A stretch of 64,000 bases of DNA from Cognaticolwellia sediminilitoris (GTDB taxonomy: Bacteria; Pseudomonadota; Gammaproteobacteria; Enterobacterales; Alteromonadaceae): the NCBI GenBank assembly GCA_002104535.1, contig NBOG01000003.1, forward strand, positions 248,001 through 312,000, read 5' to 3'. This document shows positions 37,029 through 51,392 of the stretch, one piece after another. The notes under the pieces are model-generated. The model was not told the origin of the DNA and did no database searches. It saw only the letters and a program-made list of their open reading frames with translations. The position numbers were made by a program, and so were the translations under genes. Positions within the stretch are counted from its first letter, which is position 1. Every line of letters begins with the position of its first letter.

Positions 37029-37124
37029 TAAGTACTCTCCCAAGAACTGTTTATGTTTTATTTATAATTTTTATTACTTTTTCAAATTTTGCTGACGTTT
37101 TTTGCCGACAAAAATATGTAAGCA

Positions 37125-38336
37125 TTATAGATCTAGTTCCGCTAAGAAGCTTTTACCATAAGGCATTTTATCTAATTTAAATAATTCTGCGATAGTTTGA
37201 CCGATATCCGCAAAAGTATTTCGTTCACCAATATTAACAGATCGTACCTGTTTGTGAAATGCAATTACTGGCACATACTCTCGGGTATGATCATTGCCAT
37301 GCCACGTTGGATCACAACCATGATCCGCGGTTAAAAATAGTACATCATCATCATTCATAGCTTCAACAACTTCAGCTAAACGTAAATCGAAATTCTCTAG
37401 TGCTAAAGCAAACCCTACAGGGTCACGACGATGACCATAATCTTGGTCGAAATTTACTAAGTTAGTAAATATAAGACTATTATCTTGCGCGGTATTAATA
37501 TGTTGAATTGTTGCATCAACTAAAGCATCAATACCCGTTGCTTTGGTTTTTTCGCTTATCCCTTGATGGGCATATATATCTGCAATTTTACCAACACTAA
37601 TAACATGTCCACCTGCTTGGGTGAACGTATCTAAAACAGTGGGTGCTGGCGGTAAAATTGAATAATCACGGCGGTTGCCAGTGCGAGTAAAATCTTCTGG
37701 GCTATTGCCAATAAACGGTCTTGCGATAACACGGCCAATGTTCATATCACCGAGTAATTCGCGAACGGTTTCACAATATTTATATAGGTTTTCTAAACCA
37801 AAATGCTCTTCATGGGCAGCAACTTGAAATACACTATCAGCGGAGGTGTAACAAATAGGTAAACCGGTTTTAATATGCTCTTGCCCAAGTTTATTTATGA
37901 TATCAGTACCTGATGCGTGACAATCACCTAAAATCCCTTGAAAACCAGTTTTTTGGTTGATTTTATCGATTAATTCTTTAGGAAATGCATTACCAACTTT
38001 AGGGAAATATCCCCAATCAAATAATACTGGAACCCCCATCATCTCCCAATGTCCGCTTGGGGTATCTTTACCTGTACTTATTTCAGCAGCATAACCATAA
38101 GCTCCTTTCACAGGCTCTTGAGTAACAACAGGAAAGCTTGTCTTACCGGCTTCAAAAGCGGCTTGCACTAGCCCCATTTTAGCTAGATTAACTAACTTAA
38201 TCTCTCGCTTTTCATGTTCATGGAAGTGTCGCGCTAAATTAGCAAATGTATTGGCACTGATATCACCAAAGTCAGCTGCATCAGGCGCGTGACCAATACC
38301 AAAGCCATCAATTACTAAAACTATTGCTCTTGCCAT
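37125..38336 (-). CDS. deoB: Phosphopentomutase
   Basis: DeoB interconverts (deoxy)ribose 1- and 5-phosphates, linking nucleoside phosphorylases to central metabolism. The 403-residue protein has the alkaline-phosphatase-superfamily metal sites VLVIDGFGIGHAPDA at the N terminus and FLTADHGCDPTWHGNDHTRE at the C terminus, plus the phospho-acceptor threonine in STGKDTPSGHWEMMG. GGGAA precedes the ATG. A RutR-type operator lies 75 bases upstream. It stands apart from deoA and deoC, which are in other transcripts nearby. Confidence 0.96.
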   Translation of the reverse strand: MARAIVLVIDGFGIGHAPDAADFGDISANTFANLARHFHEHEKREIKLVNLAKMGLVQAAFEAGKTSFPVVTQEPVKGAYGYAAEISTGKDTPSGHWEMMGVPVLFDWGYFPKVGNAFPKELIDKINQKTGFQGILGDCHASGTDIINKLGQEHIKTGLPICYTSADSVFQVAAHEEHFGLENLYKYCETVRELLGDMNIGRVIARPFIGNSPEDFTRTGNRRDYSILPPAPTVLDTFTQAGGHVISVGKIADIYAHQGISEKTKATGIDALVDATIQHINTAQDNSLIFTNLVNFDQDYGHRRDPVGFALALENFDLRLAEVVEAMNDDDVLFLTADHGCDPTWHGNDHTREYVPVIAFHKQVRSVNIGERNTFADIGQTIAELFKLDKMPYGKSFLAELDL

Positions 38337-38393
38337 TTTAATTTCCCGTATTTAATTACATGCATTTTAACAAATTTTACGAAATTATCCTTT

Positions 38394-38407
38394 TTTATCT
38401 AGATAAA
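38394..38407. promoter_or_regulatory. Palindrome TTTATCTAGATAAA upstream of deoB
   Basis: A perfect 14-base palindrome ends five bases before the RutR-type box in the deoB-udk intergenic region. It may be a second operator. No protein is assigned. Confidence 0.4.
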
Positions 38408-38411
38408 TTTC

Positions 38412-38427
38412 ATGACCAGATGGTCAA
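38412..38427. promoter_or_regulatory. RutR-type operator between deoB and udk
   Basis: ATGACCAGATGGTCAA matches the RutR consensus TTGACCA-NN-TGGTCAA at every fixed position but the first. It lies 75 bases from the deoB start and 188 from the udk start, so it may serve either or both. On the minus strand its TTGACC could be part of a deoB -35. Confidence 0.7.
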
Positions 38428-38615
38428 CATGTGATACTTTACCAAGCTATTAATTATAGACAACTGATATTTTGTAAATATTTTCGGCAGATGAATTACT
38501 TTTGCCTTATTTTTAATGAATTTCAAATTAATTAGTCCATAATATGAGTGCGATAAAATCGCCATAAATAATTATTAACCCTTTTGTTATCAATTTTTTT
38601 TTAAGGCTCTCTGTT

Positions 38616-39266
38616 TTGCAAACCAATAAACCGACAATTATTGCGGTAACCGGTGCTTCGGCATCTGGAAAATCACTTTATGCGCAAACCATTTACGACG
38701 AACTATTACCTGAGCTTGGTGCTAGTGGTATTGCGATAATCAAAGAAGATTCCTACTACAAGAGTCAATCTCATTTATCCATGGAAGAACGTATTAAAAC
38801 TAACTACGATCATCCAAATGCTTTTGAACATAGTTTACTCTCAGAGCATTTAACGCAATTAAGTGCTGGTCATGATGTCGATATACCAACTTATTGTTAT
38901 AAAACCCACACCCGCTTAAATGAAACTATACATTTATCACCAACGCCTATTATATTAATCGAAGGAATACTGCTTTTTTCAGACAAAGAGCTTCGCGATA
39001 AATTTGATATTAAAATTTATATTGATACCCCTCTCGATATTTGTCTAGTGCGCAGAATTAATCGTGATACCGTTGAGCGTTCACGCAGCATCGAATCAAT
39101 TACAGAGCAATATTTAACAACTGTGCGCCCAATGTACCAACAACATATTGAACCCAATAAAGCGTTTGCTGATATTGTTGTGACACGTGGTGGCAAAAAT
39201 AGAATGGCGATTGAAATGTTAAAAGCAAAAATTCGCCAACTAATGAACAGACGTAGTATTAATTAA
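38616..39266 (+). CDS. udk: Uridine kinase
   Basis: Udk phosphorylates uridine and cytidine to the monophosphates for salvage. The 216-residue protein has the P-loop TGASASGKS, the substrate segment EDSYYKSQSHLSMEERIKTN and IDTPLDICLVRRINRD, closely matching E. coli Udk (213). Translation starts at a TTG (38616) with AAGG nine bases upstream. It is the first gene of a plus-strand set with nupC, deoC and tdk, divergent from deoB. Confidence 0.94.
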   Translation: MQTNKPTIIAVTGASASGKSLYAQTIYDELLPELGASGIAIIKEDSYYKSQSHLSMEERIKTNYDHPNAFEHSLLSEHLTQLSAGHDVDIPTYCYKTHTRLNETIHLSPTPIILIEGILLFSDKELRDKFDIKIYIDTPLDICLVRRINRDTVERSRSIESITEQYLTTVRPMYQQHIEPNKAFADIVVTRGGKNRMAIEMLKAKIRQLMNRRSIN

Positions 39267-39288
39267 GCTCAGTTATATAAAAAATCAC

Positions 39289-39320
39289 AAAATAATAAAA
39301 TAATAAAATAATAAAATAAT
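39289..39320. repeat. Four tandem copies of an 8-base unit before nupC
   Basis: AAAATAAT is repeated four times without error (39289-39320), 29 bases upstream of the nupC start codon and 22 bases after udk. It lies where promoter spacing or the leader of nupC could be affected by copy-number change. Confidence 0.85.
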
Positions 39321-39349
39321 AACGATAATAAATAAATTATGAGGTAAGT

Positions 39350-40594
39350 ATGGAATTAGGTGCACTTCGAGGAGTCATTGGCATTTTCGTGTTATTGGCA
39401 GTAGCTGTCTTTTTATCTAAAGATCGCAGCGCAATTAATTGGCGAACTGTCGGTTTTGCTTTTTCATTACAAATACTACTTGGCGCATTTGTTCTATATG
39501 TGCCTTTTGGTAAAGATGTTTTAAGCTCAATCACTAATGGCGTTCAACAGGTTATTAACAGTGCCCAAGCTGGTATCAACTTTTTATTTGGTGGTTTAGG
39601 TACAGATGCCATGTTTGAAAATGGTGTTGGCTTTGTTTTTGCCATTCGTGTTCTGCCCGTTATTATATTTTTCTCGTCACTCATCGCCGTTCTTTATTAT
39701 TTAGGTGTAATGCAGTGGGTTGTAAAAATCATCGGTGGTGGTTTACAGAAACTATTAAAAACCTCAAAGCCCGAATCACTTTCTGCTACCGCTAATATCT
39801 TTGTTGGCCAAACGGAAGCGCCATTAGTTATCCGCCCTTACATCGCAAAAATGAGTCAATCAGAGCTCTTCGCTATTATGGTAGGTGGTCTGGCTTCAGT
39901 AGCAGGTTCTATTTTAGCTGGCTATGCAGGTCTTGGCGTTAAACTAGAGTACTTAATTGCAGCCTCTTTTATGGCCGCACCGGGTGGTCTGTTAATGGCC
40001 AAACTACTCATTCCAGAGACTGAAGAAGTCAGCGATGACTACACAGATGTTGAATTAGCCGAAGCCGGAGATAAACCAGCAAACGTTATTGACGCAGCGG
40101 CTACTGGTGCAGCATCAGGTTTGAAACTCGCCGTAAACGTAGGTGCTATGTTATTAGCATTTATTGCCATCATTGCTTTACTCAATGCAATGGTATCTGG
40201 TTTTGGCAATCTTCTCGGCTTTGAAGGTATTACTATTGAATGGCTGTTGGGCTATATCTTCGCACCGTTCGCTTTCATTATTGGTGTGCCGTTTGAAGAA
40301 ATGCTACAAGCAGGTAGTTTTATCGGCCAAAAGATTGTCGTTAACGAATTTTTCGCCTATGTCAATTTTGTCGAAATCAAAGATACTTTGTCTCCTGTAA
40401 CACAGGCGATCATTACCTTTGCTCTATGTGGTTTTGCTAACTTATCCTCTATTGCTATCTTACTAGGTGGTATTGGTTCAATGGCACCTAATCGTCGCCC
40501 AGACATTGCTCGCTTAGGTATGAAAGCAATGCTTGCCGCTACTATGGCCAATTTAATGAGTGCTGCAATTGCTGGTGTATTCGTTAGCTTATAA
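39350..40594 (+). CDS. nupC: Concentrative nucleoside transporter NupC
   Basis: This inner-membrane symporter of the CNT family imports nucleosides with H+ or Na+. The 414-residue protein has about ten hydrophobic helices and the family motifs GQTEAPLVIRPYIAKMSQSE, GGLASVAGSILAGYAGLG and GFANLSSIAILLGGIGSMAP. GAGG precedes the ATG. It lies between udk and deoC, which fits nucleoside import for salvage and breakdown. Proton versus sodium coupling cannot be judged safely from motifs here. Confidence 0.95.
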   Translation: MELGALRGVIGIFVLLAVAVFLSKDRSAINWRTVGFAFSLQILLGAFVLYVPFGKDVLSSITNGVQQVINSAQAGINFLFGGLGTDAMFENGVGFVFAIRVLPVIIFFSSLIAVLYYLGVMQWVVKIIGGGLQKLLKTSKPESLSATANIFVGQTEAPLVIRPYIAKMSQSELFAIMVGGLASVAGSILAGYAGLGVKLEYLIAASFMAAPGGLLMAKLLIPETEEVSDDYTDVELAEAGDKPANVIDAAATGAASGLKLAVNVGAMLLAFIAIIALLNAMVSGFGNLLGFEGITIEWLLGYIFAPFAFIIGVPFEEMLQAGSFIGQKIVVNEFFAYVNFVEIKDTLSPVTQAIITFALCGFANLSSIAILLGGIGSMAPNRRPDIARLGMKAMLAATMANLMSAAIAGVFVSL

Positions 40595-40610
40595 ATATAC
40601 AATATTATTA

Positions 40611-40637
40611 AACGCCTAGCCCTCAGTGCTAGGCGTT
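40611..40637 (+). terminator. Hairpin between nupC and deoC
   Basis: AACGCCTAGC (40611-40620) pairs with GCTAGGCGTT (40628-40637) across 7 bases, followed only by ATTC. The weak T tract suggests partial termination or mRNA protection, with deoC beginning 30 bases later. Confidence 0.6.
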
Positions 40638-40667
40638 ATTCAAACCTTACCTTTAAGAGACTAATTA

Positions 40668-41441
40668 ATGACTAGCCTTAAAAACACCGCACAGCGTGCA
40701 CTTCAAATGATGGACTTAACCAGTTTAACTGATACTGAAACAGTGCAAGACATTATCGAACTGTGCAATAACGCTAAATCCCCTTGTGGTAACACCGCCG
40801 CTATTTGTATTTTTCCTCGTTTTATTCCTGTTGCGAAAAAAGCATTATTAGCTCAAGGTACACCGGACATTAAAATAGCGACAGTAACTAACTTCCCTCA
40901 TGGTAATGATGATATAGCTATAGCTGTTGCAGAAACTAAAGCTGCCGTTGCTTATGGCGCTGATGAAGTCGACGTAGTATTTCCTTATAAAGCTTTAATC
41001 CAAGGTAATGTTGACATTGGTTTTGACTTAGTTAAAGCATGTAAACTAGCGTGTGGTGACAAGGTTCAGCTTAAAGTCATTATTGAAACGGGCGAGCTTA
41101 AAACTGATGAACTTATCATTCAAGCCAGTGAAATATGCATTGCCGCTGGAGCCGACTTTATCAAGACATCAACAGGTAAAGTTACAGTAAATGCGACACC
41201 AAAGTCTGCTGAATTAATGCTAAAAGTTATTAAAGATAAAAACACTCAAGTAGGATTTAAGCCAGCAGGTGGTGTTAAGAATGCTGAAGACGCTGCTATA
41301 TATCTTGATTTAGCCGCTAAAATTTTAGGTGAAAATTGGGCATCTAAAGACAACTTTAGATTTGGTGCAAGTAGTTTATTAAACAATTTATTAATTACTC
41401 TTGGCGCAAGTACGGGCTCAACAAAGCCTTCAAATTATTAA
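40668..41441 (+). CDS. deoC: Deoxyribose-phosphate aldolase
   Basis: DeoC splits 2-deoxyribose 5-phosphate into acetaldehyde and glyceraldehyde 3-phosphate by a Schiff base. The 257-residue class I aldolase has the catalytic lysine in [16 protein letters not shown], the [12 protein letters not shown]-like strand (here [18 protein letters not shown]) and [14 protein letters not shown] with the conserved acidic residues. It completes the path from DeoA and DeoB products to glycolysis. The tdk start is 46 bases downstream. Confidence 0.96.
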
Positions 41442-41487
41442 ACTGAGCGAAATCGGTCAACAACACAATCTAGGACACTATCAAACT

Positions 41488-42069
41488 ATGGCGCAGTTAT
41501 ATTTTTATTATTCGACCATGAATGCCGGAAAATCTACTCACCTTTTACAGTCGTCTTATAATTACCGTGAACGTGGTTTAGAAACTTTACTGTTTACCGC
41601 TCAAATTGACGATAGATTTGCTAAAGGTAAGGTATCTTCTCGATTAGGTATTCATGCTGACGCGGTGTTATTTGATGACGATAGTAATATTTTTGAGAAA
41701 GTTGAACAGCACATTAGCAAGCAAAAAGTCGCTTGTATTTTAATTGATGAAGCACAGTTTTTAAATAAAACTCAGGTCAGACAATTAACTGACATAGTTG
41801 ATGAATTGAAAATCCCAGTACTTGCCTATGGAATTCGTACTGATTTTCTTGGCGAAACCTTTGCAGGTAGTGCTGCTCTTCTAGCCTGGGCTGATAAATT
41901 AGTTGAATTAAAAACTATTTGTCATTGTGGTAAAAAAGCCAATTTTGTCATGCGTTGTGATGAGCAAGGTAATGCCGTTAAAGGTGGTGAACAAATTGAA
42001 GTCGGCGGTAATGAGCGCTACGAGTCGCTCTGTAGAAAACACTTTAAAGCGCAGGTATGGTGCGATTAA
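41488..42069 (+). CDS. tdk: Thymidine kinase
   Basis: Tdk phosphorylates thymidine and deoxyuridine. The ATG at 41488 begins [20 protein letters not shown], the universal start with its P-loop. The open frame extends upstream into deoC, but that part is not conserved. The 193-residue product has the catalytic glutamate in [28 protein letters not shown] and the zinc cysteines of the lasso domain ([19 protein letters not shown]). It is the last gene of the udk-nupC-deoC-tdk set. Confidence 0.95.
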
Positions 42070-42092
42070 CGTAAGCTTATTTCAAGGATAAA

Positions 42093-42116
42093 AAAAGGAT
42101 GCAGATGCATCCTTTT
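42093..42116. terminator. Bidirectional terminator between tdk and deoA
   Basis: AAAAGGATGCA (42093-42103) and TGCATCCTTTT (42106-42116) form an 11-base-pair stem with a two-base loop, 23 bases past the tdk stop. deoA converges on it. Confidence 0.82.
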
Positions 42117-42217
42117 CTGTTTCTAGCGTTTGTCTTGAACTTAAATCAATCAACACTGATATGTTAAACAACTTAACAAAACTAATAACTTTAGAGTCAA
42201 GTCAAGTTAAGCTTAAA

Positions 42218-43534
42218 TTAAGCAGAAATTGTCTGATAAACTACTGGCTGTGACTCTACAGATTTTTCAGTTATAGCTAACGCCGCTAAATATTGCTTAC
42301 TGGCTTGTAAGGCAGAGTCTTTATCTCTTGCATGAACACGAGCGACAACATCACCACGATTAACTAGCGTACCAATAGGTAAAACTCTATCAAAGCCAAC
42401 ACTATGATCGATTTGTTGACCATTTGCTGTTCTACCACCTTTTAAGCCAACAACAGCCATACCAATATCACGTGTTTGCATGCCGACAATATAGCCATGG
42501 GTAGGTGCAATTATATCTAAGATTACTTCAGCACGTTCCATTAAACGCCATGGATCTTCCATAAAATCGCTCGGACCGCCTAGAGCATGAATGATTTTGC
42601 CAAAAAGTTCTGCAGCTTCACCAGAAGCTAAAACGCCGTTGATTTTTTTCAGTGCAACTTCTTCATTTTCTGCAATTTTGCTACTTATTAGCATAGCTTT
42701 TGCTAAAGCAACAACAACGGCATGTAAACGAGGCTCACGCAACGTACCGTTTAAATATTTAACCGTTTCAGCCATTTCTAAGGCGTTACCTGCCGTAGCA
42801 CCTAGCACCTGATTCATATCAGTGATAATAGCTTGTGTTGGTACACCTGCGCCATTGGCAACATTAACAATGCTTTGCGCTAAAGCTTTAGCATCGTCAA
42901 TATTAGACATCATTGCACCATTACCAACTTTGACATCCATTACCAATGTATCTAGCCCTGCAGCGAGTTTTTTAGACAATATAGAAGCGGTAATCAATGG
43001 AATAGATTCAACGGTAGCGGTAATATCTCGAATACCGTACAAACGTTTATCAGACGGCGCTAAATTGTCAGTTTGAGAAATTATCGCAACACCTAAGTCT
43101 TTAACAATGCGTTTAAATTCACTGGTACTAGGTTGGACATTAAAGCCTTGGATGCTTTCTAATTTATCTACTGTACCGCCGGTGTGACCTAAGCCTCGAC
43201 CAGCAATCATCGGTACATAAGCACCACATGCCGCAACGATTGCAGCTAACATGAAACTAACCTTGTCACCAACACCGCCAGTTGAATGCTTATCTACTAT
43301 CGGTCCATCTATTTCAGGCCAACTTATAACATCGCCAGAATTTTTCATCGCCATAGTAAAGTCGATGATTTCTTGCGTGTTCATACCCTTTTGGTAAATG
43401 GCCATTGCCATTGAACCCGCTTGTGCATCATTAAAGTTTAATGTTACTAAACCATCAACAAAATACTGAATTTGTTCTTGGGTAAGTGAGCCACCGTCAC
43501 GTTTTGTCCGAATTATTTCTTGTGGTAATAACAT
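42218..43534 (-). CDS. deoA: Thymidine phosphorylase
   Basis: DeoA cleaves thymidine and deoxyuridine with phosphate, giving the base and deoxyribose 1-phosphate. The 438-residue protein has PQEIIRTKRDGGSLTQEQIQ at the start, the phosphate-binding VDKHSTGGVGDKVSFML, the substrate motif SKKLAAGLDTLVMDVKVGNG and the C-terminal hammerhead domain (GFDRVLPIGTLVNRGD). Its ATG shares one base with the cdd stop (TAATG), so the two are one operon behind a RutR-type operator. Confidence 0.96.
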   Translation of the reverse strand: MLLPQEIIRTKRDGGSLTQEQIQYFVDGLVTLNFNDAQAGSMAMAIYQKGMNTQEIIDFTMAMKNSGDVISWPEIDGPIVDKHSTGGVGDKVSFMLAAIVAACGAYVPMIAGRGLGHTGGTVDKLESIQGFNVQPSTSEFKRIVKDLGVAIISQTDNLAPSDKRLYGIRDITATVESIPLITASILSKKLAAGLDTLVMDVKVGNGAMMSNIDDAKALAQSIVNVANGAGVPTQAIITDMNQVLGATAGNALEMAETVKYLNGTLREPRLHAVVVALAKAMLISSKIAENEEVALKKINGVLASGEAAELFGKIIHALGGPSDFMEDPWRLMERAEVILDIIAPTHGYIVGMQTRDIGMAVVGLKGGRTANGQQIDHSVGFDRVLPIGTLVNRGDVVARVHARDKDSALQASKQYLAALAITEKSVESQPVVYQTISA

Positions 43535-43965
43535 TAATTTAAATCCTTATTTTCAAGTAAATCTTTTGGCGTAAATGCATCCGGTAATAATTCATTTACT
43601 GTCCATTGTTTTTGTTCATTGTTATGGTTAACAGCTATCACTAAAGCTTCAGGCGATAAAAACTCGACAATGACTTGTCGACAAGCTCCACAAGGAGGCG
43701 TTAGCTTCTCTTGATTGGTATAAATAACAATAGCGGAAAATTTTCTCTCACCAGATATTACACCTTGCGCTAAACAATTACGCTCTGCACATACAGTTAA
43801 ACCATAGGAAGCGTTCTCAACATTACAACCTTTGACGATCTTTCCTGAAGTCGTTAATGCAGCAGCACCTACATGGAACTTGCTATAAGGCGCATAAGCT
43901 TTATTAAAAGCATCTTTTGCTGCCTCTCGTAGCCCTAAGAATTCATTATTTTTTATATTCGACAT
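43534..43965 (-). CDS. cdd: Cytidine deaminase
   Basis: Cdd deaminates cytidine and deoxycytidine to uridine and deoxyuridine. The 143-residue protein is the short homotetrameric type, with AYAPYSKFHVGAAALT, the zinc/proton-shuttle site TVCAERN and the zinc pair PPCGACRQ. It is the first gene of the cdd-deoA operon. A RutR-type box ends 16 bases before the ATG, so bound repressor would block transcription through the leader. Confidence 0.95.
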   Translation of the reverse strand: MSNIKNNEFLGLREAAKDAFNKAYAPYSKFHVGAAALTTSGKIVKGCNVENASYGLTVCAERNCLAQGVISGERKFSAIVIYTNQEKLTPPCGACRQVIVEFLSPEALVIAVNHNNEQKQWTVNELLPDAFTPKDLLENKDLN

Positions 43966-43980
43966 TTTTAAACCCTTTAA

Positions 43981-43996
43981 CTGACCATATGGTCAA
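43981..43996. promoter_or_regulatory. RutR-type operator upstream of cdd-deoA
   Basis: CTGACCATATGGTCAA matches TTGACCA-NN-TGGTCAA at all fixed positions but the first, with a 14-base perfect core palindrome. It lies 15 bases from the cdd ATG. On the minus strand a possible TTGCTT and TAGGAT promoter lies just upstream, which would place the box at the transcription start. Confidence 0.75.
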
Positions 43997-44116
43997 CTTA
44001 CCAGTCATCCTAATTAATCGGTCATAGAAAAGCAACTTAAAAATCTTCTGATCCCCTGATTACGGTGTAATAAAGGATAGATCCCTTCACCATAATCATA
44101 GTATGAAATAAAAGGT

Positions 44117-44147
44117 AAAAAAAAAGCCAACATAAATGTTGGCTTTT
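44117..44147 (-). terminator. Terminator of the Oar-like TonB receptor gene
   Basis: AAAAGCCAACAT (44122-44133) pairs with ATGTTGGCTTTT (44136-44147). On the minus strand a run of T residues (complement of 44117-44125) follows, 20 bases beyond the receptor stop. Confidence 0.88.
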
Positions 44148-44167
44148 GATACAAGGGTTATGAAAAA

Positions 44168-47100
44168 TTAGAAAGTGTATTTAACACCAATTTTCATGCT
44201 CCAAGTTGACTCACGGTCTTTAAATCTAGCTGGAGTCTCATTTTCATCAATATTTGCAGTTGTATAAACATATTGACCTGCATCATTGATGCTGTAATCA
44301 AGTAACTCTGTAGATGATTGACCAAATGGTAATTGATAAACACGTGCTGCACGAGCATCAAAGAATGCTAAGGCGTTCTTAATATCAACATAGAATAAAC
44401 CTTTATGTCCATCAAAAAATCCTGGGATTTCTTGTTCTAGACGTAAGTCCATCGTTGTTGTCCATGGCGCGTTATGTGAGTTTTTATCAATGTAACCACC
44501 GTCAGAGCTAATACCTGCTTCAGCTAACTCAGCCATAATATCGTCATAGCTCATGCCATTGTCAAAATCTACAGCTGGGTCACTAGCATCAGTTGGGATA
44601 TAAACTAAGTTTGAAGTTGTTAAATCAAGATTGCCCGAGAAACCACTGCGGTTATTATAACCTAATACATAGCTAAATGGACGACCTGACTTACGCTCCC
44701 AGAACATGTGCACACCAGTGTTATAACCTTCAAATAATTCTGCATTATATGAAAGGTTCATGGTTAAACGATGTTTCACTTGATAAGCTGAAGTACCTAC
44801 AGTCGGGTTTTCAGGATCAAGCACTGGGTTAAAGTTATAAGCCGTGTTTGTTGAAGTACCTGTAGCATCTATACGGTTACGAATAGTTGAATGAGTGTAA
44901 GAGAAATTCGCTTTAAAGCCATTCTGCCAATTTTTAGCTAATGTTAATGTTTCTATTAGCGTATGACCGCCGGTAGTATTTGTTAACATTACGTCACGTG
45001 CATCACGATCTGGATCAGCGAAGGTGTAAATTGGACGACCATCAACAGTATAACCTGCATTACCTTTAGAGGTATCTAAAGTACGTGATAAGTCAGACCA
45101 AATCATGTCTTTCTGAACAGCTTTGTAAAGTACTTCACCACTAATACGCCAATCATCTCCTAAGCCTATATTGCTAAAGTCAGCTATATAATCAGCAGCT
45201 AAGCTATATTGCCAAGTAGTTGGAATATCAAAGTTAGGATCAATGGTATCAATATTTGTATTTGGACCACCTAACTCAGATTGTGAAATTTTATCTTGTG
45301 CATGTTGAGGAATACTGTTTGGATCAGCATCTTGCAAGAATGTGCTGGCAGCAATTGGGTCACCAAAAGTACGATATAACGCGATTCTTGAACCATCGTT
45401 GGTAAATGCATTTGAAATAAATACATTAGGACGACCACCACTAAACAAACCAGCACCACCGCGAATAGTTAAATCATCGGTTGCATTCCACGTAAAGCCT
45501 ATACGAGGTAGAAGTACGCTTAAACCATCCAAGTTTTCATTATTTTCAAAACCATAACGTTCAACAAAACTTGCGTTAACATTTGGTTTATCTTTGTTAG
45601 TTGTTGTTTCATAACGTAAACCGTAAGTTACGTTTAATGAATCATTTACATCCCAACTATCTTCAATATATAAAGAGTGGTTACCTAATGCGAATGCTGC
45701 CGCGGCATCATCACGATTAAGGCTAGGGTTATTTTGATATTCAAACCAATCTGCAATACCCGCTTCATAATCGTCAATGCTTTCAAAATACCAAGAACCT
45801 AAGTAATGCTGCATAAAGATGTTGTAAACGTCTACTTTCTCGTATTCCCAACCAAATGAGATCGCGTGTTCTTCGTAAAGGTACTCACCACTTACACGAA
45901 CTTGTAAAGTTTCGTTAGTTAACTGGTTAGCATGACGGCTATCATCAGCGCCGAGCATGATTTCACCGCCCCCAACAGTATCAATTTTAACTTCACCGAA
46001 CTCTAAACCGCCAAGAGAAACTTGACCGTTAACTGACTCTTTCTTAGAAACTTTAACTTCTGTTGAAAAATCTTCATTCCAATATGAGAATAATTGGCCA
46101 ACATAAGTATCGAATTCGTTAGAGCGATTATACCAATGTGAAGAAAGGTATAAATCATCAGAACGACCGCCACCTTGGTTACCTGCACTGTTGCTTGAAC
46201 CATGAGAATAGGTGAATGATGCACGATGGTCATCGTTGATGTTCCAATCAAGTTTCAAAGAGTATTTTTCATCTTCTAACGGAATTGAATTATCCCAACT
46301 ACCTGCCTCATAACCATATTTATCTCTAGAGATTTGTACAACACGGTCAACTTCGGCTTGTGATACCTGTGAAACTTTATTCGCTACGTTAGAGTCAGAT
46401 GGACCTTTATCAACAGAGCTCGGTGATTCAAAAGTTTCATAAGATGCGAAAAAGAATAATTTATCTTTAATGATTGGACCACCAAGAGTAGCACCCCAAC
46501 TTTCTTCATCAAAGCTTAAATCAAGTCTGTCACCATCACCAGTGATAGGTTCACCAGCCCAATCATCTTTCGCTTGTTCGAAAAACATTGAACCATGAAA
46601 GTCATTAGTACCAGATTTTGTTACAACACTAATTTTACCACCAGAGAAACCGCCTTCTTTGGCAGTAAATGGTGCGATAGCTACACTGATTTGATCAATT
46701 GAATCAAAACTAATAGGTGAACGCTCAGTTGGGTAACCGTTACCGGCTAAACCAAAATCATCATTAAGGTTTACACCATCAACCGCTAAACTGTTATATC
46801 TAGGGTTACTGCCCGCTAATGAAAGTGTATTACCGTCATTACCAACAACAGCCATCGGGTTTTGTCTAACGATGTCTTTTAAATCACGATTAAAAGCTGC
46901 AGACTTTGTTAAGTCATCGCCACTAAATACGCTTGATGAACCTTTTGAAGGGTCGAAGAATGTTGAAGAGCCTGTAACCGCAATACGCTCAATACTTGCA
47001 TCTTCTAGAACTTCGTTAACACGGAAAACATCACCTAGAGTGATGTAGACACCTTCAAGTTTTTTGTCAGCATATACGTCAGAGTCAATCGTAATAGTGT

Positions 47101-47344
47101 ATGGACCACCAACACGAAGGCCTTTTGCTGAGAAAGCTCCAGTTTCGTTTACTTTTAGAACTTTACGAGTACCTGATGGCTCATGAACGATCGTGATCGT
47201 TGCATCAGTTACAACATTACCACTCGCAGTGAGAATGTTTCCTCGAATTGAAGATGACGTATCATCAGCCATAGCTGATGTTGTCAATCCTAGTGCAAGT
47301 ACAACCGCACCAGTAATGCGTGAGAGACGATGAGTTTTCATCAT
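44168..47344 (-). CDS. Oar-like TonB-dependent receptor with N-terminal carboxypeptidase-regulatory domain
   Basis: This large outer-membrane receptor (1058 residues) has a signal peptide (ending LTTSAMA), a carboxypeptidase-regulatory-like beta domain (about 30-110, SIRGNILTASGNVVTDATIT), a TonB-box-like IERIAVTGS, a plug (LSLAGSNPRYNSLAVDGVNL, SGGKISVVTKSGTNDFHGSM) and a barrel ending in MKIGVKYTF. This Oar-type layout is common in marine bacteria. The substrate is not shown by sequence. Its neighbours (cdd-deoA on one side; RutR-like regulator, secreted nuclease/phosphatase and alkaline phosphatase on the other) suggest nucleic-acid or nucleotide-derived material. AAAGGA precedes the ATG. 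The long leader holds a weak RutR-type box. Confidence 0.9.
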   Translation of the reverse strand: MMKTHRLSRITGAVVLALGLTTSAMADDTSSSIRGNILTASGNVVTDATITIVHEPSGTRKVLKVNETGAFSAKGLRVGGPYTITIDSDVYADKKLEGVYITLGDVFRVNEVLEDASIERIAVTGSSTFFDPSKGSSSVFSGDDLTKSAAFNRDLKDIVRQNPMAVVGNDGNTLSLAGSNPRYNSLAVDGVNLNDDFGLAGNGYPTERSPISFDSIDQISVAIAPFTAKEGGFSGGKISVVTKSGTNDFHGSMFFEQAKDDWAGEPITGDGDRLDLSFDEESWGATLGGPIIKDKLFFFASYETFESPSSVDKGPSDSNVANKVSQVSQAEVDRVVQISRDKYGYEAGSWDNSIPLEDEKYSLKLDWNINDDHRASFTYSHGSSNSAGNQGGGRSDDLYLSSHWYNRSNEFDTYVGQLFSYWNEDFSTEVKVSKKESVNGQVSLGGLEFGEVKIDTVGGGEIMLGADDSRHANQLTNETLQVRVSGEYLYEEHAISFGWEYEKVDVYNIFMQHYLGSWYFESIDDYEAGIADWFEYQNNPSLNRDDAAAAFALGNHSLYIEDSWDVNDSLNVTYGLRYETTTNKDKPNVNASFVERYGFENNENLDGLSVLLPRIGFTWNATDDLTIRGGAGLFSGGRPNVFISNAFTNDGSRIALYRTFGDPIAASTFLQDADPNSIPQHAQDKISQSELGGPNTNIDTIDPNFDIPTTWQYSLAADYIADFSNIGLGDDWRISGEVLYKAVQKDMIWSDLSRTLDTSKGNAGYTVDGRPIYTFADPDRDARDVMLTNTTGGHTLIETLTLAKNWQNGFKANFSYTHSTIRNRIDATGTSTNTAYNFNPVLDPENPTVGTSAYQVKHRLTMNLSYNAELFEGYNTGVHMFWERKSGRPFSYVLGYNNRSGFSGNLDLTTSNLVYIPTDASDPAVDFDNGMSYDDIMAELAEAGISSDGGYIDKNSHNAPWTTTMDLRLEQEIPGFFDGHKGLFYVDIKNALAFFDARAARVYQLPFGQSSTELLDYSINDAGQYVYTTANIDENETPARFKDRESTWSMKIGVKYTF

Positions 47345-47593
47345 AGTTTTCCTTTGGTATAAGTTAAATTAATGTTTTGCAATATGTTTTATTAAAGTTA
47401 TTTTTAGCTAATTATTATTTTTTAAACCTATTTCAGGGCAAATTAAAACAGAGTTTTATAACATTTTCATTACAATATTTTACACGTTACATTTTTCTTA
47501 TTCCAATTTTTTAACTTATTCAAAGAGCCAAACACAACATAAACAATAAAACATCATAATAACAAAAACTTACGTAAAAATTTTAAACAGACT

Positions 47594-47618
47594 AAAAAAA
47601 CCCTTATAACAGCAAGGG
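47594..47618 (-). terminator. Possible leader terminator of the Oar-like receptor gene
   Basis: On the minus strand CCCTT, an 8-base loop and AAGGG form a short stem followed by seven T residues. It lies between the RutR-type box and the receptor ATG, 250 bases before the ATG. The stem has only five base pairs. Confidence 0.35.
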
Positions 47619-47656
47619 CAATATACACAAGCTGATATAACAAAAAATCATAAAAA

Positions 47657-47672
47657 CAAACCATTTGGTCAA
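47657..47672. promoter_or_regulatory. Degenerate RutR-type box between Oar-like receptor and regulator
   Basis: CAAACCATTTGGTCAA has one perfect half-site (TGGTCAA) and matches the RutR consensus at 11 of 14 fixed positions. Its minus-strand TTGACC could serve as a -35 for the receptor. It is over 300 bases from either start codon. Confidence 0.5.
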
Positions 47673-47976
47673 GATAAAATAAAGTATGATTTTAATTAAG
47701 TTCTATAAGGTCTGTAAAACATAAGATATATTAACCAAAAGGAAATATGAGCTTAATATGTCTTAAAAACTTATTAACTTATTAATACAAAGCACATTAA
47801 AACAGTGTCTTAACTAACGTTTTAAATTAAACTTAGTTATTAAAGACTGAAGATTTGAAACCTTTATGTAAAACGACTATGAACATGATGAACTTAAGCA
47901 AACAATCATCAGTTTCATATTGGTGATCTTATTCATGATTTTTTTACACTGTTAAACAATAAATAACTATCCAGTA

Positions 47977-48004
47977 TTGACGTTAGAGATAACGTTCATA
48001 AAAT
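47977..48004 (+). promoter_or_regulatory. Candidate promoter of the TetR regulator with an inverted repeat
   Basis: TTGACG (47977-47982) and TAAAAT (47999-48004) are 16 bases apart, with the expected start about 20 bases before the GTG. ACGTTA-GAGA-TAACGT (47980-47995) is a perfect inverted repeat covering the -35 and spacer, so it could be an operator. It is unlike the RutR box. Confidence 0.45.
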
Positions 48005-48032
48005 TAATTTTATAACTTAAAAGGTTATTCGT

Positions 48033-48665
48033 GTGAGCAACAAGACCGGTAATGAAAAACAAGGAAGTATTCGCGCTCGAAGTGAAGCTGTTATATTAGC
48101 TGCGGCCCAAAAAGAATTTATTCTTCAGGGTTTTAAAGGCGCGACAGTACAATCTATTGCGGATACTGCAGGTTTACCTAAAGCCAATGTATTATATTAT
48201 TTTAAAAATAAAGAAAACATTTATCACGCTGTTTTACAATTAACACTTGATACTTGGGATCAAGGTATTGGTGAGCTCGATATTAAAGATGGACCTGTTC
48301 TAGCCATTGAAAAGTTTATTGCGGCAAAAGTTAAGATGTCTTTTGAACACCCACAAGCATCTAAAATTTACGCAATGGAGATCATTCAAGGTGCATTACA
48401 TTTAAAAGACTTTGCACGAACTTACCTAAGACAATGGGTTCGAGAAAAAGCTAAAGTTTTTCAAGTGTGGATTGATAGCGGTGAAATGAAAGATGTTGAC
48501 CCGGTTAAATTAATTTTTCTTATTTGGTCTTCTACACAGCATTATGCGGATTTTGAACAACAGATCCTTACCATTATGAACCGCGCCGATTACGAAGAAG
48601 ATGACATGAAGCAAGTGACCGAGTTTTTAACCGACTTTATCTTACGTGGTTGTGGTCTTAAGTAG
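48033..48665 (+). CDS. TetR-family regulator closely resembling RutR
   Basis: The 210-residue protein has an N-terminal helix-turn-helix (ATVQSIADTAGLPKANVLYY) and a RutR-type C-terminal domain. Against E. coli RutR as I remember it, the matches are strong: HPQASKIYAMEIIQGA, LIFLIWSSTQHYADF and NVLYYFKNKENIYHAVL. RutR binds uracil and controls pyrimidine and purine metabolism. No rut operon is present in this window, so I do not use that name. Translation starts at a GTG after AAAAGG. It is eight bases upstream of the secreted EEP-family gene. RutR-type boxes near three neighbouring nucleoside transcripts make it their likely regulator. Confidence 0.9.
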   Translation: MSNKTGNEKQGSIRARSEAVILAAAQKEFILQGFKGATVQSIADTAGLPKANVLYYFKNKENIYHAVLQLTLDTWDQGIGELDIKDGPVLAIEKFIAAKVKMSFEHPQASKIYAMEIIQGALHLKDFARTYLRQWVREKAKVFQVWIDSGEMKDVDPVKLIFLIWSSTQHYADFEQQILTIMNRADYEEDDMKQVTEFLTDFILRGCGLK

Positions 48666-48673
48666 GAGTCAAG

Positions 48674-49897
48674 ATGAAAAAATTAACCAATTTTATAGCA
48701 ACTACATTGCTAGTTTATTCAGGGGCTGCTATGTCACATGCATCTAAAGTTCCATCATCGAGTATTCGCATTGCAACATTCAATGTTAGTATGGAGGCCC
48801 TTAATTACTCACCTTCAACGCCTGAAGGTGAGGTAAAAGCAACAGCTAATGAATTAACCCTCGCTTTAAAGAGCGATAATCAACAAATTAAAAATATTGC
48901 AGAAATAATTCAACGAGTAAACCCTGATATTATTTTACTCAACGAATTTGATGGTAATGACGAAAGTCATCAATCATTGAAGCTATTTATCACGCAATAC
49001 TTAGCGAAAAGTCAAAATGGTCATGCGGCTATCGACTACCCCTACTTTTATCAAGGCCCGGTTAATACTGGTGTTGCCTCAAATTATGACTTAAATAACG
49101 ACAATAAAATTGGCCAATTACCTAACGACGCATTCGGCTACGGGCTTTATTCGGGTCACTTCGCCATGGCTTTATTATCAAAGTACCCCATTGTTGAAAA
49201 AGATATTCGTACTTTTCAGATGTTTAAATGGCGAGATATGCCAAATGCCTTACAGCCGATTACTCCTGCAACAAATACCCCTTGGTATAATGAACAAGCT
49301 TGGAATAACTTTCGCTTATCGTCTAAGTCACACTGGGATATCCCAGTAAGCATCAACGGTAAAGAATTACATGTACTAGCCAGTCACCCTACTCCACCAG
49401 TATTTGACGGGCCGGAGGACAGAAACGGAAAACGCAATTTCGATGAAATTCGCTTTTGGATAGATTACCTAACACCAAGTGCTGCTTCTTATATTTATGA
49501 TGATAATAAAAAGTATGGTGGTCTTGCTGAAGATAAAGCCTTTGTTATTTTAGGCGACTTAAATGCTGATTCGGTTGATGGAAATGCTATCAAATCAGGC
49601 ATAAATCGCCTGATCAACCACCCGCGTGTTAATGACCCTAAACCTACCAGTGAAGGCGGTAAATTACACCGACCAGAAAATCCTAACGCTAAATACCATA
49701 CTGCTTATTGGGGTATGAGAGCAGATTATGTCTTGCCAGAGAAGTCGCAGCTCAATATTTTAGATTCTGGTATATTTTGGCCAACAAAAGAAACGAAAGA
49801 ATTTAGCTTAATTAAAGATCGTGCGGCATCATCAGATCATCGTATGGTCTGGGTCGATATTGAGTTTAAATCGCATAATAACAATGCTAAGCCGTAG
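48674..49897 (+). CDS. Secreted endonuclease/exonuclease/phosphatase-family enzyme
   Basis: The 407-residue protein has a signal peptide (MKKLTNFIATTLLVYSGAAM region) and the DNase I-like fold. Conserved positions are seen in order: Asn in IATFNVSME, metal Glu in IILLNEFDGND, catalytic His in LASHPTPPVFDG, Asp-x-Asn in VILGDLNADSVDG, Asp in MRADYVLPE and the final Ser-Asp-His in ASSDHRMVWV. Members cut DNA/RNA, phosphodiesters or phosphomonoesters. Which one applies here is unknown. It follows the RutR-like gene by eight bases with AGGAG before the ATG, and precedes an alkaline phosphatase, so a role in extracellular nucleic acid or nucleotide breakdown is a reasonable inference. Confidence 0.88.
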   Translation: MKKLTNFIATTLLVYSGAAMSHASKVPSSSIRIATFNVSMEALNYSPSTPEGEVKATANELTLALKSDNQQIKNIAEIIQRVNPDIILLNEFDGNDESHQSLKLFITQYLAKSQNGHAAIDYPYFYQGPVNTGVASNYDLNNDNKIGQLPNDAFGYGLYSGHFAMALLSKYPIVEKDIRTFQMFKWRDMPNALQPITPATNTPWYNEQAWNNFRLSSKSHWDIPVSINGKELHVLASHPTPPVFDGPEDRNGKRNFDEIRFWIDYLTPSAASYIYDDNKKYGGLAEDKAFVILGDLNADSVDGNAIKSGINRLINHPRVNDPKPTSEGGKLHRPENPNAKYHTAYWGMRADYVLPEKSQLNILDSGIFWPTKETKEFSLIKDRAASSDHRMVWVDIEFKSHNNNAKP

Positions 49898-49955
49898 TAA
49901 AAACAAGTATCTGGTAACTTAATCTATTAACTTTAGAATAAAGCGAAAAATAAAA

Positions 49956-51392
49956 ATGAAAAAAATTGTCCCAACGTTATTAACAAGTTTGCTTATTATG
50001 TCTTGTAGTCAGCTACAGACTTTAAATAACGCTGAAAATAACACCGTTGTAAAAGCAGCAGACTTGCCTAAAAATATTATCATGATCGTTGGTGATGGTA
50101 TGGGGCCAGCATATACTACAGCCTATCGTTATTTCCATGACGATCCAACGACACCTGAGCTAGAGACCACGGTATTTGATCGCCACTTTGTTGGCATGAG
50201 TAGCACTCATCCTGCTCCTGAATCAGGTTACATTACAGATTCAGCCGCTAGTGCTACCGCGTTATCAACTGGCGTTAAAACATATAACGCGGCAATTGGT
50301 TTAGACACCAACAGACAACCTGTGGAAACAGTTTTAGAGTACGCGAAAAAAACCGGTAAAAAAACTGGTGTTGTCGCAACTTTACAAATCAATCACGCCA
50401 CACCAGGCTCATACTTAGCCCATAATGTTCATCGTTATAATTACAATGAAATTGCTGATAGCTATATTGATGACGGTATTAAAGCAGACCTATATTTTGG
50501 TGGTGGATGGAAGTACTTTATTCGCGAAGATAGAAACCTAGTTAACGAGTTCATTGCATCAGGATTTCACTATATTGATAGATATAGTGACATTAATACA
50601 TTACCTGCAAACAAACCTGTTTTAGGATTATTTGCTGATACTGGTTTACCTTGGGCATTAGATGATAGCAATAAGTTCCGACTGTCAATGATGGCTAAAG
50701 CTGCCACTAAACAGCTTGAAAATAAAAATGGCTATTTTATGTTGATTGAAGGTAGCCAAATTGATTACGGCGGACATGCTCGTGATATTGCTGCTGCAAT
50801 AACTGAAATGGATGACTTAGCTAAAACGCTTGAATATCTGGAGACTTATGTTGCAGAAAACCCAGATACTTTAGTGGTTATCACAGCCGATCACAGTACT
50901 GGTGGTTTAACTATCGGTAAAAAGACTGGTCGTACAGATGACGATATTAATAGTAAATACCTTTGGAAACCTGAATTTTTACGCACGATGACCATGTCAC
51001 CAGAAGCGATTGCTAAAAAATTCACTACCGATACGCTTTCACTTGAAGATGTATCTACATTAATTTCATTTGAAATCACTGACACTGATATGGCTAATCT
51101 AGTTCAAGCTAAACTTGAAGATAGCGCCATTGTTTCAGCGTTTAATGCCCTTTCAGATGCCGATAAAAAAGGTCAAAGAGTACCTCGTGCTTACCAGTCT
51201 ACGCTAAATGTGCTGACAAAATTAATTGATATGAAAACCAACACCGGTTGGGGCTCAATTAGTGCGTCAGGTACGCATACTGGTATCGATGTGCCGGTAT
51301 TTGCTTTTGGTAAAGGCAGCGAAGCCTTTAAAGGTTTTCAAGACAATACCGACATAGCAAAGAAAATTTTCACTTTGCTAGGTAAAAAATAA
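49956..51392 (+). CDS. Alkaline phosphatase (PhoA family), lipoprotein
   Basis: The 478-residue enzyme hydrolyses phosphate monoesters outside the cytoplasm. A lipoprotein-like signal (LTSLLIMSC) suggests attachment to a membrane. The active site is complete: first metal Asp in IVGDGMGPAY, nucleophile Ser in ITDSAASATALSTGVKT, HATPGSYLAHN, EGSQIDYGGHA, TADHSTGGLT and GTHTGIDVPVFAFG. It lies 58 bases after the EEP-family gene in the same direction and probably forms an operon with it and the RutR-like regulator. Control by nucleosides or pyrimidines, not only by phosphate, is therefore possible. No Pho box was recognised. Confidence 0.93.
   Translation: MKKIVPTLLTSLLIMSCSQLQTLNNAENNTVVKAADLPKNIIMIVGDGMGPAYTTAYRYFHDDPTTPELETTVFDRHFVGMSSTHPAPESGYITDSAASATALSTGVKTYNAAIGLDTNRQPVETVLEYAKKTGKKTGVVATLQINHATPGSYLAHNVHRYNYNEIADSYIDDGIKADLYFGGGWKYFIREDRNLVNEFIASGFHYIDRYSDINTLPANKPVLGLFADTGLPWALDDSNKFRLSMMAKAATKQLENKNGYFMLIEGSQIDYGGHARDIAAAITEMDDLAKTLEYLETYVAENPDTLVVITADHSTGGLTIGKKTGRTDDDINSKYLWKPEFLRTMTMSPEAIAKKFTTDTLSLEDVSTLISFEITDTDMANLVQAKLEDSAIVSAFNALSDADKKGQRVPRAYQSTLNVLTKLIDMKTNTGWGSISASGTHTGIDVPVFAFGKGSEAFKGFQDNTDIAKKIFTLLGKK

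What the first reader, a model, noticed from the sequence alone, without database searches (positions are those of the whole stretch)
37125..51392. Nucleoside and nucleotide scavenging regulon under a RutR-like regulator
Three sites resembling the E. coli RutR operator lie upstream of deoB/udk (38412), upstream of cdd-deoA (43981) and between the Oar-like receptor and the regulator gene (47657). The regulator itself closely resembles RutR, but no rut operon is here. This suggests the factor was redirected from pyrimidine-ring breakdown to a regulon combining secreted hydrolases, a TonB receptor, a nucleoside transporter and salvage or breakdown enzymes. Sites and homology are read from sequence. 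The regulon and its ligand (uracil or another base) are inferred.
Basis: partly seen in the sequence, partly recalled or inferred. Interest (0 to 1): 0.78.

Follow-up and report, generated by a model that had tools for sequence, protein, structure and literature searches.

The report
RutR-like regulator of DNA and nucleoside scavenging
A marine bacterium and its relatives appear to use a cousin of a known uracil sensor, with nearly the same DNA switch sequence, to control genes that look able to digest DNA, take up nucleosides and break them down, and the outer-membrane receptor gene in that set seems to have been swapped repeatedly between species.

Summary
The window is Colwellia-type marine DNA. 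TGACCA-NN-TGGTCA is the top palindrome, found without a prior motif, upstream of cdd (35 of 53 exact) and udk (18 of 25) across relatives. The weak third site, at Oar/tetR, is also conserved (53 of 69 with at most 2 mismatches; 0.7 expected). In 16 congeneric genomes 32 of 40 exact genome-wide sites lie at cdd and deoB/udk; the rest at pgi (5), add, an endonuclease I gene and an oad-like operon. Sites track the regulator: cdd 13 of 19 positive, 0 of 8 negative genomes; deoB 14 of 19, 0 of 5.
The regulator is RutR-like, not RutR: 35% identity, below family cut-offs. Four of five uracil contacts are kept; Y97 is F. No RutA was found in the genome. Several relatives sit beside xanthine dehydrogenase genes, so "redirected from pyrimidine-ring breakdown" is unsupported. 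Likely mechanism (inferred): repression relieved by a free base that DeoA releases.
Also: the Oar-like receptor at this locus appears exchanged between species while its flanks stay.

The parts
34767..37043 (-). TonB-dependent receptor downstream of deoB on the same strand, possibly co-transcribed
   Evidence: Pfam Plug and beta-barrel; a homologue follows deoB in 14 of 19 deoB loci of regulator-positive genomes, identities 43-88%
37125..38336 (-). deoB, phosphopentomutase
   Evidence: NF003766, 558 bits
38412..38427 (.). RutR-type operator ATGACCAGATGGTCAA between deoB and udk
   Evidence: 1 mismatch, core exact; conserved upstream of udk; deoB upstream 14 of 19 regulator-positive, 0 of 5 negative
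38616..39266 (+). udk, uridine kinase
   Evidence: NF004018
39350..40594 (+). nupC-type nucleoside transporter
   Evidence: TIGR00804 over cut-off
40668..41441 (+). deoC, deoxyribose-phosphate aldolase
   Evidence: TIGR00126
41401..42069 (+). tdk, thymidine kinase (family match begins at residue 30, so the true start is near 41488)
   Evidence: NF003300
42218..43534 (-). deoA, thymidine phosphorylase
   Evidence: TIGR02643
43534..43965 (-). cdd, cytidine deaminase
   Evidence: NF004064
43981..43996 (.). RutR-type operator CTGACCATATGGTCAA, 15 bp upstream of the cdd start codon
   Evidence: 1 mismatch, core exact; 48 of 53 upstream regions with at most 1 mismatch
44168..47344 (-). Oar-like TonB-dependent receptor, one of several apparently exchanged alleles at this position
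   Evidence: PF25183, CarboxypepD_reg, Plug; allele differences and tree conflict
47657..47672 (.). weaker RutR-type operator CAAACCATTTGGTCAA between the Oar-like gene and tetR
   Evidence: 3 mismatches but in a conserved block; 53 of 69 regions have a site with at most 2 core mismatches
48033..48665 (+). RutR-like TetR-family regulator
   Evidence: TetR_N and TetR_C_3; TIGR03613 169.9 bits, under the 368 cut-off; closest solved structure by sequence E. coli RutR 3loc
48674..49897 (+). DNase-I-fold hydrolase (endonuclease/exonuclease/phosphatase family), apparently exported, substrate unknown
   Evidence: PF03372; N-terminal signal sequence read by eye; AlphaFold model pLDDT 75.5 matches EEP folds
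49956..51392 (+). alkaline phosphatase, apparently exported (lipobox-like N-terminus read by eye)
   Evidence: PF00245, E 3.2e-84; translation

Best explanation
A RutR-subfamily TetR regulator (48033-48665) controls a regulon for scavenging DNA and nucleosides. It binds TGACCA-NN-TGGTCA operators at deoB|udk, at cdd-deoA and, more weakly, between the Oar-like gene and its own gene. Without ligand it most likely represses. Exported hydrolases cut and dephosphorylate nucleic acid, NupC imports nucleosides, and Cdd, DeoA, DeoB and DeoC turn pyrimidine deoxynucleosides into a free base plus triose phosphate and acetaldehyde. Without a Rut pathway the base is not opened by that route and may accumulate; free uracil, thymine or a close relative then binds the pocket and releases the operators. 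Shown by computation: site conservation, co-occurrence of sites and regulator, gene content, conserved pocket residues. Inferred: binding, repression, ligand, physiological role.
For: De novo palindrome count puts TGACCA-N2-TGGTCA first upstream of cdd and udk; shuffles and three control patterns do not reach it. Exact core genome-wide: 68 in 31 genomes with the orthologue against 9 for the reversed control pattern, and 16 against 12 in 25 genomes without it. Site with at most 1 mismatch within 350 bp upstream: cdd 13 of 19 against 0 of 8 (p 0.0014), deoB 14 of 19 against 0 of 5 (p 0.006) (of 11 negative genomes, 8 have a cdd and 5 a deoB match). In 16 congeners the 40 exact sites fall at cdd (16), deoB/udk (16), pgi (5), add, an endonuclease I-LTD gene and an oad-like operon (one site per genome confirmed by tblastn, others also by tblastn or by distance from the regulator). 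K52, a base-contacting residue of E. coli RutR, is kept in 67 of 67 aligned orthologues (67 of 68 loci gave a usable protein); uracil contacts W77, Q171, Q179 in 67 of 67 and W167 in 65 of 67 (roles of the residues from passages of PMC10891134). Synteny of cluster and regulator.
Against: The uracil-contacting Y97 is F in 61 and I in 6 of 67 orthologues, so the ligand may differ from uracil. Sites are not universal: 4 of 31 regulator-positive genomes have no exact site (G036, G042, G049, G054), and 6 of 19 lack a cdd site and 5 of 19 a deoB site at 1 mismatch or fewer. Peripheral targets are patchy: add 1 of 17 and pgi 1 of 19 in the diverse set; the ExeM-like gene has a match in 2 of 30 genomes. 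Promoter scans around the sites are at or below chance, so the repressor geometry is a guess. A second RutR-like protein in the genome could share sites. Cdd homologues of the negative genomes are more distant (37-59% identity), so they are not a perfect control.
Confidence: 0.78

Rival explanations
1. The sites are read by the other RutR-like regulator of the genome, the one in the purine-catabolism cluster (G000:C5:26746-27372), or by both; the window's regulator controls little.
For: The paralogue exists. RutR-like genes beside xdhA in L104, L301 and L303 have the same exact motif next to them, so the motif is not unique to the nucleoside clade.
Against: The paralogue in this genome has R for K52 and H for L56 in the recognition helix, where the window's regulator keeps K and L. 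In C5:1-40000, which holds the purine cluster, the two matches with at most 1 mismatch fall inside ORFs. Sites track the window's orthologue across genomes; genomes that have only the paralogue were not tested at cdd and deoB.
Confidence: 0.12
2. The regulator senses a nucleoside, deoxynucleoside or nucleotide, or a purine base, rather than uracil or thymine.
For: Y97 is lost. Three of seven relatives from outside the clade, and the genome's own paralogue, lie with purine-catabolism genes. The regulon handles purine nucleosides too in this genome (add).
Against: Both stacking tryptophans and both glutamines that contact uracil are conserved.
Confidence: 0.35
3. The boxes are chance matches or merely inherited sequence without function.
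For: Within the window alone the count is near chance, and congeners share recent ancestry.
Against: Conservation across several genera at different distances from the genes, shuffle and reversed-pattern controls, and absence upstream of cdd and deoB in genomes without the regulator.
Confidence: 0.03

Closest known systems
E. coli RutR (rutABCDEFG repressor, uracil-responsive)
   Same: TetR fold with TetR_C_3 domain, operator motif, K52, and four of five uracil contacts (PMC10891134 passages)
   Different: 35% identity, below the RutR family cut-offs, Y97 replaced, no RutA found in the genome, and the marked genes are for nucleoside uptake, catabolism and salvage instead of ring opening
RutR-like regulators beside xanthine dehydrogenase genes (Hahella L102, MAG L104, Neptunomonas L107, G024, G058) and the paralogue in this genome
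   Same: Same family; exact motif next to the regulator in L104, G024 (L301) and G058 (L303); L102 and L104 about 50% identical to the window protein
   Different: Neighbours are xdh and in part guaD and urate oxidase; the four checked (own paralogue, L102, L104, L107) have H or Y instead of L at recognition-helix position 56
RegPrecise RutR regulons (Leyn et al. 2016, PMC5343134)
   Same: RutR regulons predicted in 68 genomes of 13 proteobacterial groups, with taxon-specific motif changes (passages)
   Different: The passages seen call it pyrimidine catabolism and name no Colwellia RutR target. Supplement and database were not opened, so an earlier prediction of this regulon cannot be excluded
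CytR, DeoR and HexR control of nucleoside genes (recalled, except HexR and nucleoside metabolism: passage of PMC5343134)
   Same: Similar target genes
   Different: Other protein families and other operators (recalled)

Membership tests
RutR (TIGR03613 / PRK15008 equivalog) | score above curated cut-off | tested here: not met
   169.9 bits vs 368; 145.5 vs 230
RutR | TetR_N plus YcdC-like C-terminal domain | tested here: met
   PF00440 and PF08362
RutR | operator TTGACCA-NN-TGGTCAA | tested here: met
column counts.
RutR | uracil pocket W77, Y97, W167, Q171, Q179 | tested here: inconclusive
   four kept, Y97 is F or I (residues named in PMC10891134)
RutR | regulates a rut operon | tested here: not met
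   no RutA match in the genome at E 0.001; the same search matches E. coli
RutR | released from DNA by uracil | not testable with these tools
   needs EMSA or ITC
Purine-cluster RutR-like regulators | lies with xdh, guaD or urate-oxidase genes | tested here: not met
   window neighbours are nucleoside genes; the genome's purine cluster has its own paralogue

The most novel reading that the evidence does not exclude
A RutR-subfamily regulator links DNA feeding to a free base as signal, and its regulon carries an outer-membrane receptor locus that works as an exchangeable cassette: signal peptide, leader with operator and flanking operons stay while the mature Oar-like receptor is replaced across genera, plausibly under phage or toxin pressure or for different nucleic-acid ligands.
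Probability: 0.4. Interest if true: 0.72.

Novelty: new variant of a known kind. Interest (0 to 1): 0.52.

Why it matters
It gives a testable, family-wide regulatory circuit for how marine Colwellia-type bacteria may turn DNA into food, shows the RutR operator apparently in use for a different pathway, and ties nuclease genes and TonB receptors of unknown ligand to nucleic acids. The receptor swapping at a fixed, regulated site would be a concrete test case for what drives outer-membrane receptor diversity.

Tried and rejected
Leader attenuator: a terminator-like hairpin in the Oar leader (47619-47600) is not kept in the alignment of the window and 10 relatives (by eye), and Rfam gives no match there; rejected.

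Sites inside coding sequence, including 44318 in the Oar-like gene and the C5 matches at 1458 and 10030, were treated as chance. Most of the 2-mismatch sites elsewhere in the genome lie inside ORFs and were dropped; a few intergenic ones (in L122, L129, L131, L143) were not identified.

General control of add and pgi: no conservation in the diverse set (1 of 17 and 1 of 19), so treated as lineage-specific.

Reductive pyrimidine breakdown: a D-hydantoinase-family search gave only matches below cut-off; dihydropyrimidine dehydrogenase was not searched.

Literature: ten searches. RutR with Colwellia returned one paper, PMC5343134; the one mention of Colwellia in its text concerns HutC. The RutR ligand-specificity paper PMC4325133 is not held.
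Full report
What is there. The window lies at G000:C20:248001-312000 of a 3.84 Mb genome; the nearest named relatives of its regulator are Colwellia and Cognaticolwellia. Family searches give, in order: a TonB receptor, deoB, udk, nupC, deoC, tdk, deoA, cdd, an Oar-like TonB receptor, a TetR regulator with a RutR-type C-terminal domain, an endonuclease/exonuclease/phosphatase-family protein and an alkaline phosphatase. The last two have apparent export signals when read by eye. In relatives the regulator keeps this company: of 68 loci (L035-L101 and L105) at least 52 hold cdd within the fetched stretch, some of the others being short contigs.

The sites. So I looked without a motif. Counting gapped palindromes in upstream regions (52 of 68 loci gave a cdd region, 24 a udk region, 68 a region upstream of tetR; the window was added to each), TGACCA-N2-TGGTCA is the commonest 6-base pair upstream of cdd (35 of 53) and udk (18 of 25). 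Allowing one mismatch it is 48 of 53 and 19 of 25; the six udk misses all come from regions under 180 bp that the locus end cut off. In the Oar-tetR region no exact palindrome of this kind stands out, but 53 of 69 regions have a site with at most two mismatches against about 0.7 expected, and the 47657 site is in a conserved block in the window and 10 relatives.

Whole genomes. I searched 56 family genomes for the exact core (G006, G030 and G039 of G000-G058 were left out). The 31 with the orthologue hold 68 sites against 9 for the reversed control; 4 of the 31 (G036, G042, G049, G054) hold none. The other 25 hold 16 against 12. In the 16 congeners there are 40 sites: 16 at cdd and 16 at deoB/udk, assigned by tblastn or by distance from the regulator, five at pgi, and one each at add, an endonuclease I-LTD gene and an oad-like operon. 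In 30 genomes chosen for comparison (19 with, 11 without the orthologue) a site with at most one mismatch lies within 350 bp upstream of cdd in 13 of 19 positive and 0 of 8 negative genomes with a cdd match, and of deoB in 14 of 19 and 0 of 5. Add and pgi do not show this pattern in the same set (1 of 17 and 1 of 19). Outside the congeners only part of the listed sites was looked at: 12 stretches, 8 in regulator-positive genomes. Those eight lie near an EEP-family gene (about 30 bp), an Oar/udk divergent promoter (two genomes), a phosphorylase-superfamily gene (about 450 bp), a chemoreceptor (about 200 bp), an amidohydrolase (about 410 bp), inside an ORF (L291), and beside an unidentified gene (L294). 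In this genome a 2-mismatch site precedes an ExeM-like LTD nuclease gene.

The regulator. It is 35% identical to E. coli RutR and scores 169.9 bits against a cut-off of 368 for the RutR family, so it is RutR-like rather than RutR. K52, a base-contacting residue of RutR, and W77, Q171 and Q179 are the same in 67 of 67 aligned orthologues and W167 in 65 of 67; Y97 is F in 61 and I in 6 (roles of these residues from passages of PMC10891134). Of seven relatives from outside the clade, L102 and L104 (about 50% identical) and L107 (37.5%) lie beside xdh genes, L103 and L106 near amidohydrolase genes, and L108 and L109 gave no match to the genes tried. RutR-like genes of G024 and G058, in the window's own family, also lie beside xdhA with an exact motif. 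The genome has a second RutR-like gene in a purine-catabolism cluster. The tree leaves the deep order open, and E. coli RutR is a long branch. RutA is not found in the genome.

How it likely works (inferred). The cdd operator lies 15 bp before the start codon, where a bound dimer could block transcription; promoter scans were uninformative. The base released by DeoA (uracil or thymine), or a related molecule, would be the inducer. Exported hydrolases, NupC, Cdd, DeoA, DeoB and DeoC make a route from nucleic acid to triose phosphate; transaldolase and pgi could tie it to central carbon in some strains. The EEP protein has a DNase-I-type fold in an AlphaFold model (pLDDT 75.5) whose matches include nucleases, phosphodiesterases and sphingomyelinases, so its substrate is not settled.

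The receptor. Among 59 long Oar-like proteins (window plus 58 loci; L085 and L088 lie at a second locus), single linkage at 60% identity gives 14 groups, five of them single proteins. The window's receptor is 84-87% identical to five close relatives but 39-44% to five others of the same clade, while more distant genera share its group. DNA identity to L035 falls to 43-67% between about 44.2 and 47.2 kb and is higher on both sides; signal peptide and leader stay alike. Four of four genomes tested have one match at E 1e-60 or better, at this place. A tree of flanking proteins (29 of 30 chosen loci, quick method) rejects two Oar groups, named beforehand, as clades (log-likelihood differences 1547 and 914), and the eight classes need at least 14 changes. 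Loss of different copies from an old tandem pair is an alternative, since L050 and L051 carry two copies; but the window's receptor is closer to that of L067 and L071 (79%) than the flanking DeoA, Cdd and EEP proteins are (53-65%), which favours exchange. The cause is unknown.

Verdict. The regulon is well supported by computation and is a new variant of RutR-type regulation; ligand and binding are untested. Whether RegPrecise already lists it could not be checked. Feeding on extracellular DNA is documented for Shewanella and others in marine sediment (PMC8289736, abstract and passages); Colwellia does not occur in that text.

Noticed in passing
window 44168-47344 and the same place in relatives L035-L101: The Oar-like receptor between cdd and tetR belongs to one of about 14 groups that are apparently exchanged across species and genera; flanks, signal peptide and leader are conserved.
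   Followed up: yes
L050 2388-9251, L051 2333-9346: Two Oar-like receptor genes in tandem between cdd and the regulator.
   Followed up: no
L085, L088: In Colwellia sp. 75C3 and 12G3 another copy of the regulator lies next to an Oar-like gene at a second locus, with no match to the nucleoside genes in the stretch.
   Followed up: no
L116 6746-7372 (G000:C5:26746-27372): Second RutR-like regulator in a purine-catabolism cluster (xdh, guaD, urate oxidase, ureidoglycolate lyase) with changed recognition-helix residues.
   Followed up: partly
L299 2086-2099 (G028): Exact operator core about 200 bp upstream of a Cache-domain chemoreceptor gene.
   Followed up: no
window 47797-47812: Conserved block AAAACAGTGTCTTAA upstream of the regulator gene, possibly another regulator's site.
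   Followed up: no
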